Under the pieces are notes generated by a model. That model did no database searches. It worked only from the letters and a program-made list of their open reading frames with translations, and was not told the DNA's origin. From assembly GCA_030765185.1 (NCBI GenBank), contig JAVCDE010000005.1:1-46514 (forward strand): a DNA stretch of 46,514 nt. The letters are read 5' to 3'. This DNA comes from Candidatus Aceula meridiana (GTDB lineage: Bacteria > Omnitrophota > Gorgyraeia > Zapsychrales > Aceulaceae). Positions 44,057 to 46,514 of this stretch are shown piece after piece. The position numbers and the translations under genes were made by a program. The number at the start of each line of letters is the position of its first letter. Within the stretch, counting starts at the first letter, position 1.

Positions 44057-45003
44057 ATATTTTAGTTACTGGGGCCAATGGTTTTATTGGGCGAGCATTG
44101 TGCCGTGTTTTAACGGTGCAGGGGCATGTTGTCCGGTCTGCGGTGCGCTCTGTAGAGAAATTTGAACAGCTGCCGGATGGTGGTGAAAAAGTTTCTGTGG
44201 GTGATATTGGGTCGAATACAGAATGGTCATCAGCATTGGAGGGCATTGACGCAGTCGTTCATTTAGCGGCCCGTGTCCATATTTTTAAAGAATTGACCGC
44301 TGATTCACTTGAGGCATTTCGCAAAGTGAACGTGTTGGCAACTGAACGCCTGGCGCTAGCAGCTACAAAGGCAGGAGTTAAAAGATTTATTTTTATCAGC
44401 TCCGTCAAGGTTAATGGCGAGGGAAGTTCGCAGCCATACACTGAGAGCGACTGCCCTAATCCTCAAGATGCTTATGGAATCAGCAAGCGTGAAGCTGAGG
44501 ATGTGTTGAGGATAATCGCGGCTGAGACAGGGATGGAGGTTGTTATTCTACGACTGCCGTTAGTTTATGGCCCAGGGGTGGGGGCGAATTTTAAGAATTT
44601 GACTAAGCTTGTTGCTCTTGGCGTACCGCTGCCGTTTAAGAATATTGATAATCAGCGCAGTTTTATTTATCTTGGCAATTTGATAGATGCTATTGCTGTA
44701 TGCGTTGAACATCCTAAGGCTACAGGAGAGACTTTTTTGATAAGCGATGGCGAGGATGTTTCTACTCCGGATTTAATGAAAATAATAGCGAATGCATTAG
44801 GTAAGAAGTTAAGATTATTTTCTTTGCCTTATGGTATTTTAAGGATATTGTGCAAAATTGCAGGCAAGAGTGAGCAGTTGGAGAAATTGACAGGGACTCT
44901 TCTCGTTGATAGCAGTAAAATTAGGGATTTGCTTGATTGGAAGCCACCCTTTAGTCTTGAGGAAGGCATCAAAGAAACTGTGAAGAAGGGTATTAGCGTT
45001 TAG
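44053..45003 (+). CDS. NAD-dependent epimerase/dehydratase, WbpV/QuiNAc-type 4-reductase-like
   Basis: 316 aa. NILVTGANGFIGRALCRVL, then VHLAARVHIFKE, FISSVKVNGEGSSQPY and catalytic DAYGISKREAEDVL; LPLVYGPGVGANFKNL is typical of the WbpV/WreQ group that reduces UDP-4-keto-6-deoxy-GlcNAc to UDP-N-acetylquinovosamine. The start is GTG inside a GTGA overlap, with AGGAGCC as ribosome site. Its last codons and stop merge in phase with a heptanucleotide repeat tract. A second near-copy of its 3' coding end lies at 46371-46394. In other loci a WecA/WbpL-type initiating transferase follows such a gene; none is found here. Confidence 0.85.
   Translation: MNILVTGANGFIGRALCRVLTVQGHVVRSAVRSVEKFEQLPDGGEKVSVGDIGSNTEWSSALEGIDAVVHLAARVHIFKELTADSLEAFRKVNVLATERLALAATKAGVKRFIFISSVKVNGEGSSQPYTESDCPNPQDAYGISKREAEDVLRIIAAETGMEVVILRLPLVYGPGVGANFKNLTKLVALGVPLPFKNIDNQRSFIYLGNLIDAIAVCVEHPKATGETFLISDGEDVSTPDLMKIIANALGKKLRLFSLPYGILRILCKIAGKSEQLEKLTGTLLVDSSKIRDLLDWKPPFSLEEGIKETVKKGISV
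44959..44982 (+). repeat. Left copy of a 24-bp near-direct repeat (3' coding end of the SDR gene)
   Basis: These 24 bases encode EEGIKETV. They match 46371-46394 at 22 of 24 positions, differing at the fourth and seventeenth base. The two copies enclose the heptad repeats and the XRE/Fic gene pair. Confidence 0.7.
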
Positions 45004-45062
45004 TATATGGTATGCAGTATGTAGTATATGGTATCTAGTATGGAGTATGTGGTATGTAGTAC
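45000..45062 (+). repeat. Heptanucleotide tandem repeat, nine units (consensus NNRGTAT)
   Basis: Nine consecutive 7-mers can be laid out: TTAGTAT, ATGGTAT, GCAGTAT, GTAGTAT, ATGGTAT, CTAGTAT, GGAGTAT, GTGGTAT, GTAGTAC. The first unit contains the TAG stop of the SDR gene, and TTAGCGT just before it is in phase. Heptad tandem repeats are known from cyanobacteria (STRR sequences); a shared mechanism is not implied. Confidence 0.85.
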
Positions 45063-45087
45063 TCAGGATGGCGTTGAGCGGATATGT

Positions 45088-45114
45088 CCCACCTTCGCGC
45101 AAGGCTTCGGCGGG
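45088..45114. repeat. 27-bp GC-rich interspersed repeat, copy 1
   Basis: Begins CCCACCTTCGC and ends GGCTTCGGCGGG. It recurs with small changes at 45120-45145. It is much richer in GC than the surroundings and contains a small CCTT/AAGG hairpin. Its placement between heptad tracts suggests an interspersed repeat family. Confidence 0.7.
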
Positions 45115-45119
45115 TAAAT

Positions 45120-45145
45120 CCACCTTCGCCGTAGGCTTCAGGCGG
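45120..45145. repeat. 27-bp GC-rich interspersed repeat, copy 2
   Basis: Reads CCACCTTCGCC, then GTAGGCTTCAGGCGG. It aligns to copy 1 with a few substitutions and one extra base. It runs directly into the second heptad tract. Confidence 0.7.
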
Positions 45146-45173
45146 ATAGCGGATAGTGTTTAGTGGATAGAGA
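45146..45173 (+). repeat. Heptanucleotide repeat, four units (ATAGCGG type)
   Basis: ATAGCGG, ATAGTGT, TTAGTGG, ATAGAGA. The same heptad type returns at 46409-46443 on the other side of the XRE/Fic pair. Confidence 0.7.
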
Positions 45174-45200
45174 GAGATTTCTATTCTTTTAGGATTAGTT

Positions 45201-45220
45201 TGTTGACATATTAGACAACA
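45201..45220. promoter_or_regulatory. Operator palindrome 1 for the XRE/Fic operon
   Basis: TGTTGACATATTAGACAACA: TGTTG-N10-CAACA, half-sites agreeing at 7 of 10. It covers the -35 box TTGACA. A second palindrome of identical plan lies 33 bp downstream, centre to centre. Confidence 0.8.
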
Positions 45221-45231
45221 TATACTATACT
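45203..45231 (+). promoter_or_regulatory. Strong sigma70-type promoter of the XRE/Fic operon
   Basis: Consensus -35 TTGACA (45203-45208), 17-nt spacer, -10 TATACT (45226-45231). It is the best promoter in the window. The start of transcription would fall inside operator palindrome 2, so binding at either palindrome should block RNA polymerase. Confidence 0.85.
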
Positions 45232-45233
45232 TA

Positions 45234-45253
45234 TGTTGATATATAAGTCAACA
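45234..45253. promoter_or_regulatory. Operator palindrome 2 for the XRE/Fic operon
   Basis: TGTTGATATATAAGTCAACA: same TGTTG-N10-CAACA plan, half-sites agreeing at 8 of 10. It begins 2 nt after the -10 box and covers the expected transcription start. Spacing of 33 bp from palindrome 1 places both on the same face of the helix. Confidence 0.8.
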
Positions 45254-45289
45254 ATAAGTAGCTGTATAGAGCATTAAAAGGATGCAAAT

Positions 45290-45760
45290 ATGAAAAATAA
45301 GAATCTTCAGAGCACAAGAAAACAAATCGATGCCAAGCTTGTGAAAATAAAACGATTGGGAGCAATGGCGCAGCGTCCGTCTAAGGGATGGATTTATGTT
45401 ATACGGACGTCTCTAGGTCTTAACGTAAGGCAGTTCGCTGAACTCATGGGTGTTGACAAATCACGGATTAGCCGTATGGAAAAAGACGAGATCAGGGGAT
45501 CTTTAACGATTCATTCTCTTCGCCATGCCGCCCAAATTTTGGGCTGTGAGCTTGTTTATGCATTTGTTCCTTTAAAGAATCTTGAGGATGTTGTTAGAAA
45601 AAGAGCAGGGGTTGTTGTCCAACAACAACATGATCGTAGTTCGCATACGATGGCGTTAGAAGGCCAGGAATTGGATCAGCAACAGAAGAAGTCTTTTTTT
45701 AAAGCAGAAATTGAACAATTGTGTCGAGAAACGCCAAAATATTTATGGGAGAGGTCATGA
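45290..45760 (+). CDS. XRE-family repressor, 'mobile mystery protein A' type
   Basis: 156 aa. A helix-turn-helix of the XRE class lies at about 36-90: WIYVIRTSLGLNVRQFAELMGVDKSRISRMEKDE, then SLRHAAQILGCELVYAFVP. The pattern and pairing fit the family called mobile mystery protein A, which is always found upstream of a Fic-family mobile mystery protein B and often on mobile DNA. Its role is probably antitoxin-like or at least autoregulatory: the promoter before it carries two matching palindromes. AAAAGGAT stands 6 nt before the ATG. The stop overlaps the Fic gene by 4 nt (ATGA). The Gln-rich VVQQQHDRSSH region after residue ~105 may be a linker. Confidence 0.88.
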   Translation: MKNKNLQSTRKQIDAKLVKIKRLGAMAQRPSKGWIYVIRTSLGLNVRQFAELMGVDKSRISRMEKDEIRGSLTIHSLRHAAQILGCELVYAFVPLKNLEDVVRKRAGVVVQQQHDRSSHTMALEGQELDQQQKKSFFKAEIEQLCRETPKYLWERS

Positions 45761-46344
45761 GTAAATCAAAGATCTATCCTCAGGAAACTCCTCTTGACCC
45801 TGATGAAGAAAATGGATTGCTGATAGCACATATCACAACCCGCAAGGAGCTCAACTATTGGGAACAGAGCAATATTGCTCAAGCCATGCAATGGTTAGCT
45901 AAGAAACAACAAAAAAATTCTTTAACTGTTATTTTTATTCGTAAACTTCATAAAAAGATGTTTGGTATGGTTTGGGCTTGGGCTGGAGAGTTTCGTAAAA
46001 GTGACAAAAATATAGGTGTTCCAGCACGGCTTGTTGCCTCTGAGCTACAGAAGCTTTGTGATGACGCTGAGTTTTGGGTTAGAAATAAGACTTTTTCTAG
46101 CGATGAAATTGCTGCGCGCTTTCATCATCGTTTGACGTGGATTCATCCATTTCCTAACGGCAACGGTCGACACGCACGTTTGATGACGGACCTTTTTTTG
46201 AAAACTATTTTTAATGCGCCTTGTTTCACGTGGGGTTCAGTCAATTTGATACAACAAGATTCTGCGCGAAAACGTTATGTTAGCGCGCTGCAATCTGCGG
46301 ACGCTGGTGATTTTAGGCCATTGTTGGATTTTGTTAGGACATAA
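45757..46344 (+). CDS. Fic/Doc-family AMP-transferase, 'mobile mystery protein B' type
   Basis: 195 aa. The Fic motif is HPFPNGNGRHAR (130-141), with catalytic His130 and phosphate-binding loop intact. WAWAGEFRKSDKNIG (74-88) is the flap region before it, and DEENGLLIAHITTRKELNYWEQ at the N-terminus is typical of mobile mystery protein B. Fic enzymes usually transfer AMP (or another nucleotide part) to Ser, Thr or Tyr hydroxyls of target proteins and act as toxins or regulators. I do not see a clear inhibitory [S/T]xxxE[G/N] helix; TTRKEL (27-32) is the nearest match but lacks the final Gly/Asn. Start is the ATG in the overlap with the XRE gene. Confidence 0.9.
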   Translation: MSKSKIYPQETPLDPDEENGLLIAHITTRKELNYWEQSNIAQAMQWLAKKQQKNSLTVIFIRKLHKKMFGMVWAWAGEFRKSDKNIGVPARLVASELQKLCDDAEFWVRNKTFSSDEIAARFHHRLTWIHPFPNGNGRHARLMTDLFLKTIFNAPCFTWGSVNLIQQDSARKRYVSALQSADAGDFRPLLDFVRT

Positions 46345-46370
46345 ACCGAACATGGCGATAGCTTTTTTTT

Positions 46371-46394
46371 GAGCAAGGCATCAAAGCAACTGTG
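46371..46394 (+). repeat. Right copy of the 24-bp near-direct repeat (remnant of an SDR 3' end)
   Basis: Reads EQGIKATV in the frame matching the SDR gene at 44053. 22 of 24 bases equal 44959-44982. The frame closes at TAG 46408-46410 (EQGIKATVGLQRE) and runs straight into the ATAGCGG heptads. It begins 27 nt after the Fic stop. Confidence 0.65.
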
Positions 46395-46408
46395 GGACTT
46401 CAGAGGGA

Positions 46409-46443
46409 ATAGCGGATAGCAGATAGAACATAGCTGATATTGG
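46409..46443 (+). repeat. Heptanucleotide repeat, five units, right of the XRE/Fic pair
   Basis: ATAGCGG, ATAGCAG, ATAGAAC, ATAGCTG, ATATTGG. First unit identical to the first unit of 45146-45173. The last 71 nt of the window after it hold nothing I can name. Confidence 0.75.
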
Positions 46444-46514
46444 GCGGTAAAGAGCGAAATGTGAAAAGTTGGATGAGGATTATCGATGTAGGTTGAAGGA
46501 TAAAAAGAAGAATC

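What the first reader, a model, noticed from the sequence alone, without database searches (positions are those of the whole stretch)
45201..45253. Twin 20-bp palindromes straddling a consensus promoter of the mobile mystery pair
TGTTGACATATTAGACAACA and TGTTGATATATAAGTCAACA share TGTTG-N10-CAACA, lie 33 bp apart centre to centre (three helical turns) and cover the -35 and the transcription start of a TTGACA-N17-TATACT promoter. It predicts cooperative binding of mobile mystery protein A and tight autorepression. I know of no described operator for this family.
Basis: partly seen in the sequence, partly recalled or inferred. Interest (0 to 1): 0.7.

Follow-up and report, generated by a model that had tools for sequence, protein, structure and literature searches.

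The report
Operator ruler of a Fic toxin-antitoxin pair
In front of a little-studied two-gene unit (a DNA-binding protein plus a Fic enzyme) sit repeated binding sites whose letters change from species to species while their 32-33 base-pair spacing stays fixed, which points to a self-regulating switch made of proteins lined up at set intervals on one face of the DNA.

Summary
No such pair arose in 5,000 shuffles, and the pair is unique in the 1.9-Mb genome.

The architecture, however, is conserved. In 52 homologous loci (Omnitrophota, Desulfuromonadales and relatives, proteobacteria, a Euzebya plasmid), best lags are 33 bp (29 loci) and 32 bp (13) out of 47 tested; 18 of 23 representatives under 60% identity agree. 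Sequences differ between clades and follow the recognition helix (partial r 0.39). Arrays hold 2-5 sites, the last often over the ribosome-binding site. HipB-type controls, flanking DNA and shuffles lack the peak; other helical-phase lags (21/22, 42/43) are flat.

Best reading: an autoregulatory operator array of an XRE-Fic toxin-antitoxin-like pair, with adjacent A dimers coupled over a fixed distance. Binding, cooperativity and toxicity are inferred, not shown. Multi-operator autoregulation is known (hipBA: 28/39/28 bp), so this is a new variant of a known kind.

The parts
45201..45220 (.). Operator site O1, TGTTGACATATTAGACAACA; contains the -35 hexamer
   Evidence: shuffle test
45234..45253 (.). 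Operator site O2, TGTTGATATATAAGTCAACA; covers the inferred transcription start
   Evidence: lag 33 ranks 1 of 47 in this locus
45203..45208 (+). -35 hexamer TTGACA (inside O1)
   Evidence: 11/12 match with a 17-nt spacer
45226..45231 (+). -10 hexamer TATACT (in the O1-O2 linker)
45276..45283 (+). Likely Shine-Dalgarno region (AAAAGGAT). In many homologues a third site lies here; in the window no recognisable third TGTTG-type site is left
   Evidence: sequence; comparison
45290..45760 (+). mobile mystery protein A: XRE/HTH protein (HTH about aa 34-83) with a long C-terminal helix ending in TMALEGQ (aa 120-126); proposed repressor and antitoxin
   Evidence: AlphaFold model; conservation
45757..46344 (+). 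mobile mystery protein B: Fic-fold protein, motif HPFPNGNGRHAR; proposed toxin; start codon overlaps the stop of A by 4 bp (ATGA)

Best explanation
The two palindromes are operators for the XRE protein (A) of an autoregulated XRE-Fic toxin-antitoxin-like operon. They belong to a family-wide operator array with a fixed 32-33 bp pitch (about 3.1 helical turns). An A dimer binds each 20-bp dyad. Because the pitch is the same in loci whose dyad sequences are unrelated, and other helically phased distances are not used, neighbouring dimers are probably tied together over about 110 Angstrom by a bridge of fixed length. The bridge could be the long N- and C-terminal helices of A or, as toxins do in phd-doc, the toxin B itself. 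The complex blocks RNA polymerase at the -35 and the start site here and, in other members, often also covers the ribosome-binding site. Loss of A would derepress the operon. A probably also neutralises B; its invariant M-x-L-E-x-Q helix is the candidate inhibitory element. SHOWN: positions, spacing, conservation, site/linker contrast, recognition-helix correlation. INFERRED: binding, cooperativity, repression, bridge, toxicity, neutralisation.
For: Lag scan of 52 upstream regions: lag 33 best in 29 and lag 32 in 13; mean z 2.71. In 23 representatives below 60% identity, 14 are best at 33 and 4 at 32, mean z 2.98, against at most 0.63 in adjacent control regions and at most 0.78 in shuffles; 20 of 23 exceed all 200 shuffles. 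Binomial chance at any single lag about 1e-16; below 50% identity, 10 of 16 at 33 and 3 at 32; lags 21/22 and 42-44 are flat. Successive spacings (chained within 31-34): 66 x 33 and 22 x 32, none at 31 or 34; 25 loci have three sites, two have five. Sites 0.69-0.71 identical within a locus against 0.32-0.33 for linkers. Operator distance correlates with recognition-helix distance, r 0.63, partial 0.39, 0 of 2000 permutations. Controls: 25 HipB-type loci peak at 50 and 27, not 33. Sites are dedicated: no further pair in the genome. Nearest folds of A are the antitoxins HipB and HigA, though with weak E-values, 0.02 and up. In Mesorhizobium loti a mobile mystery B gene is among the 50 most heat-induced genes (M 4.02; PMC3989490), consistent with a derepressible operon.
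Against: No binding or expression data. The site/linker identity contrast is partly selected for by the scan, which maximises site similarity. Three of the 23 representatives (L034, L060, L083) show no clear array. In the window only two sites are recognisable. The single-chain A-B model gave pTM 0.57 with a disordered linker, so it says nothing reliable about docking. The permutation test keeps overall protein distance only as a linear covariate, so shared descent may account for part of the correlation.
Confidence: 0.8

Rival explanations
1. The array is a relic of tandem duplication of a 33-bp unit; the spacing reflects descent, not function.
For: Equal spacing is what tandem duplication gives.
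Against: Linkers between sites are only 32-33% identical while sites are about 70%. The pitch is the same across proteins under 50% identical with different dyads, and dyad symmetry itself is kept.
Confidence: 0.05
2. Only helical phasing matters: sites must be on one face of the DNA, with no contact between the bound dimers (for example independent sites of different strength).
For: 33 and 32 bp are close to three turns.
Against: Lags of two and four turns (21/22, 42/43) show no excess, so a particular distance is preferred, not just a phase.
Confidence: 0.12
3. The dyads act in the RNA as hairpins (attenuator or translational control) rather than as DNA operators.
For: In many members the last site covers the Shine-Dalgarno sequence and sites lie in the 5' leader.
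Against: O1 overlaps the -35 hexamer and would not be transcribed in this locus. The dyads share half-sites across copies and vary with the recognition helix of a DNA-binding protein, which hairpins would not require. 20-bp dyads without a loop are typical of dimer sites.
Confidence: 0.05
4. The sites bind a different host regulator, not protein A.
For: No binding data exist.
Against: The arrays travel with A across phyla, differ within a phylum, and their sequence follows the recognition helix of A; the own genome has no other pair.
Confidence: 0.05

Closest known systems
hipBA operators of Escherichia coli (HipB, XRE antitoxin)
   Same: XRE antitoxin gene first, toxin second; four dyad operators upstream; HipB is among the nearest folds to A
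   Different: Spacing is 28, 39 and 28 bp (measured on MG1655), not a constant 33. HipA is a kinase, not Fic. In 25 HipB-type loci the best lags are 50 and 27.
Class I Fic toxin-antitoxin pairs (VbhT-VbhA, EcFicT-EcFicA)
   Same: Small upstream gene overlapping a Fic gene; B has the Fic fold; A has an invariant Glu in a helix resembling (S/T)xxxE(G/N)
   Different: VbhA and FicA are recalled as small helical antitoxins without an XRE domain. The G/N after the Glu is not conserved in A. The Fic motif has N instead of D/E (44 of 44).
phd-doc operator with conditional cooperativity
   Same: Fic-fold toxin; antitoxin dimers on neighbouring sites bridged by the toxin (PMC4803016)
   Different: Phd is not an XRE protein; site geometry differs; bridging is only a hypothesis here.
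Xre-Fic/Doc gene pairs listed by Makarova et al. 2009 (PMC2701414)
   Same: The gene association Fic_Doc next to xre was recorded (22 occurrences)
   Different: The passages found say nothing of operators or of the mobile mystery families (no hit for 'mystery' or TIGR02612).

Membership tests
Mobile mystery protein A (TIGR02612) | Score over the curated cut-off along the whole length | tested here: met
   144.2 bits against 122.6, aa 7-155 of 156
Mobile mystery protein B (TIGR02613) | Score over the curated cut-off | tested here: met
   255.2 bits against 124.4
Canonical Fic AMP transferase | Motif HPFx(D/E)GNGRxxR | tested here: not met
   Window HPFPNGNGRHAR; N at the D/E position in 44 of 44 members with a matched motif. 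Fold and the rest of the motif are kept.
Class I Fic toxin-antitoxin | Antitoxin with (S/T)xxxE(G/N) | tested here: inconclusive
   Window TMALEG fits. Across 52 members the Glu is invariant and S/T is present in 49, but the next residue is mostly D, N, K, A or Q rather than always G/N.
Class I Fic toxin-antitoxin | Inhibitory helix docks in the Fic active site | tested here: inconclusive
   Single-chain A-B model of L075 has pTM 0.57 and a disordered linker; no coordinates or PAE could be read
Type II toxin-antitoxin system | B is toxic and A neutralises it | not testable with these tools
   Needs an experiment
Type II toxin-antitoxin system | Two-gene operon, antitoxin first, with operator-like sites at the promoter | tested here: met
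   4-bp overlap of A and B; sites at the promoter with a conserved pitch. Autoregulation itself is inferred.
hipBA-type operator set | TATCC-N8-GGATA sites spaced 28/39/28 | tested here: not met
   Site sequence and spacing differ

The most novel reading that the evidence does not exclude
A family-wide operator ruler: a protein assembly of A, or of A with the Fic toxin B, has a rigid 32-33 bp repeat and lines up along one face of the promoter and leader DNA as a short filament of two to five units. Operator letters and recognition helix evolve freely together while the pitch cannot change, so the pitch alone identifies the operators of most members.
Probability: 0.45. Interest if true: 0.7.

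Novelty: new variant of a known kind. Interest (0 to 1): 0.57.

Why it matters
It turns a pair of genes known mainly by the name 'mobile mystery' into a system with a testable regulatory anatomy. A fixed pitch with freely changing site sequence is a clean natural record of repressor-operator co-evolution (about 50 protein-operator pairs), and it predicts operators in most members from sequence alone. It also predicts a rigid protein bridge between bound dimers that can be sought in a structure.

Tried and rejected
The literal family motif TGTTG-N10-CAACA: absent from the other 51 loci. A regulon in the host genome: the four other single matches are at chance level. Phage or viral copies: no match in phages and none confirmed in viral contigs with a single protein or an alignment. 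First nine-row alignment too divergent for the contig scan. Single-chain A-B model, reading the TAA between in-frame A and B of L075 as a residue: domains confident, relative placement not. No solved relative of A by sequence. A weak GCAT-N7-ATGC dyad at 45271-45285 in the window was considered as a third site and rejected: the half-sites differ and its centre is 34.5 bp from that of O2.

Full report
1. The observation. Both are exact TGTTG-N10-CAACA, the only two exact matches in the window. The whole genome (1.91 Mb, 33 contigs) has this one pair and four further single matches, no more than the backwards control pattern. In 5,000 dinucleotide-preserving shuffles of 45090-45289 no pair of identical 5-N10-5 dyads appeared. 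The promoter TTGACA-N17-TATACT is an 11/12 match: the -35 is in the first dyad, the -10 in the linker, the inferred start in the second dyad. The genes behind it are mobile mystery A, an XRE/HTH protein (TIGR02612, 144.2 bits), and mobile mystery B, a Fic-domain protein (TIGR02613, 255.2 bits); they overlap by ATGA.

2. Read literally, the proposed test fails. But by eye most loci had other palindromes repeated at 33 bp, for example L002 with TGTTTAGTTATAATTCAACA-type dyads at -118, -85 and -52 (relative to the profile match) and L009 with TATGCTATATTTAGCATA-type dyads at -114, -81 and -48.

3. Statistics. For each locus I scored, at every lag from 14 to 60, the best set of four half-sites (two dyads) by mutual identity. 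Lag 33 was best in 29 of 52 loci and lag 32 in 13; mean z was 2.71 at 33 and 0.74 at 32, next 0.45. In 23 representatives under 60% amino-acid identity, 14 were best at 33 and 4 at 32, mean z 2.98. The regions just upstream and inside the gene gave at most 0.63, shuffles at most 0.78, and 20 of 23 loci beat all of 200 shuffles. Under 50% identity, 10 of 16 are best at 33 and 3 at 32; the chance of 14 of 23 at any one lag is about 1e-16. A control set of 25 HipB-type XRE antitoxin loci peaks at 50 and 27, with z -0.09 at 33, so the method reads family-specific spacing and 33 is not a general property of XRE promoters.

4. Anatomy of the array. Successive spacings, chained within 31-34 bp, are 33 (66 times) or 32 (22 times) and never 31 or 34; 25 loci have three sites, 15 two, 5 four and 2 five. 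Two plain cases of five are L058 (-141, -109, -76, -43, -11) and L070 (-138, -106, -74, -42, -10). The last centre lies most often 10-13 bp before the start codon, over the Shine-Dalgarno sequence (18 of 48 loci). The linkers are only 32-33% identical against about 70% for the sites, which speaks against simple tandem duplication, although the site value is raised by selection of the best match. Lags of two or four turns show nothing, so a fixed distance is kept, not just a face of the helix. In the window only two sites can be recognised.

5. Link to protein A. The dyad sequence differs between clades (for example TGTTGAC, ATATGCT, AGTCAAT, TTATAAC and TGCTTC half-sites). Operator distance correlates with distance of the recognition-helix segment, r 0.63, and 0.39 after removing the rest of the protein, with 0 of 2000 permutations as high. 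This is what a cognate repressor-operator pair should show.

6. How it probably works (inference). A dimers occupy each 20-bp dyad. With 13 bp between sites, the HTH domains are unlikely to touch; a bridge over about 110 Angstrom centre to centre is needed. The model of the window's A (mean pLDDT 91) has a long N-terminal helix (4-26) and long C-terminal helices (98-123, 130-147) beside the HTH, whose nearest solved folds are HipB and HigA. Either these helices or the Fic protein could be the bridge, as the toxin is in phd-doc (PMC4803016). Repression would follow from covering the -35 and the start. The heat induction of a mobile mystery B gene in Mesorhizobium loti (M 4.02, PMC3989490) fits a derepressible operon, but that locus was not examined here.

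7. Is it a toxin-antitoxin system? Gene order, overlap and the Fic domain fit, and Makarova et al. (PMC2701414) listed Fic/Doc-xre pairs. PADLOC's candidate defence family PDC-S04 matches B. In A, the residues M, L, E and Q of [ST]-M-x-L-E-x-Q are invariant in all 52 proteins and S/T is present in 49. The window's TMALEG matches the (S/T)xxxE(G/N) inhibitory motif of Fic proteins and antitoxins (motif as given in PMC5651007), but the G/N is not conserved in the family. In B the acidic residue of HPFx(D/E)GNGRxxR is N in all 44 proteins with a matched motif, so the chemistry may not be ordinary AMP transfer. An attempt to see docking in a natural in-frame A-stop-B read of L075 gave confident domains but no reliable placement (pTM 0.57). 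Toxicity is untested.

8. Comparison. hipBA of E. coli is the nearest known design: an XRE antitoxin with four dyads, but at 28, 39 and 28 bp. The held literature contains the words 'mobile mystery' in four papers, none about regulation in the passages found, and searches for 33-bp or tandem operator arrays in antitoxin systems found no match. The library lacks most subscription papers, so this is not proof of novelty. I rate it a new variant of a known kind.

Noticed in passing
window 44957-44982 and 46369-46394: A 26-nt direct repeat (92% identical), the first copy being near the 3' end of the upstream NAD-dependent epimerase-like gene, flanks the A-B pair with 1.4 kb between; it looks like a trace of insertion.
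   Followed up: partly
window 46388-46514: The contig end is identical over 127 bp to the start of contig C14 of the same genome, which goes on with HipB-like and HipA genes, a DUF1016/SNase protein and an AbiEi-like protein: probably a toxin-antitoxin island.
   Followed up: partly
L011-L018: More distant XRE genes of the same phylum are also followed by Fic genes (mostly HPFxNGNGRWAR); three of eight have their best lag at 32-34, so a sister family may share the ruler.
   Followed up: partly
window 46112-46180 (B) and homologues: Asn replaces the acidic residue of the Fic motif in 44 of 44 mobile mystery B proteins with a matched motif.
   Followed up: partly
L096-L125: HipB-type antitoxin loci show their own preferred dyad spacings (50 and 27) in the same scan, suggesting that operator pitch may be a family mark of XRE antitoxins in general.
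   Followed up: no
window 45001-45170: Short degenerate repeats (TAGTATATGGTATG, CCACCTTCGCCGTAGGCTTC, GCGGATAG) fill the gap between the epimerase gene and the operators; GCGGATAG-like repeats return after B.
   Followed up: no
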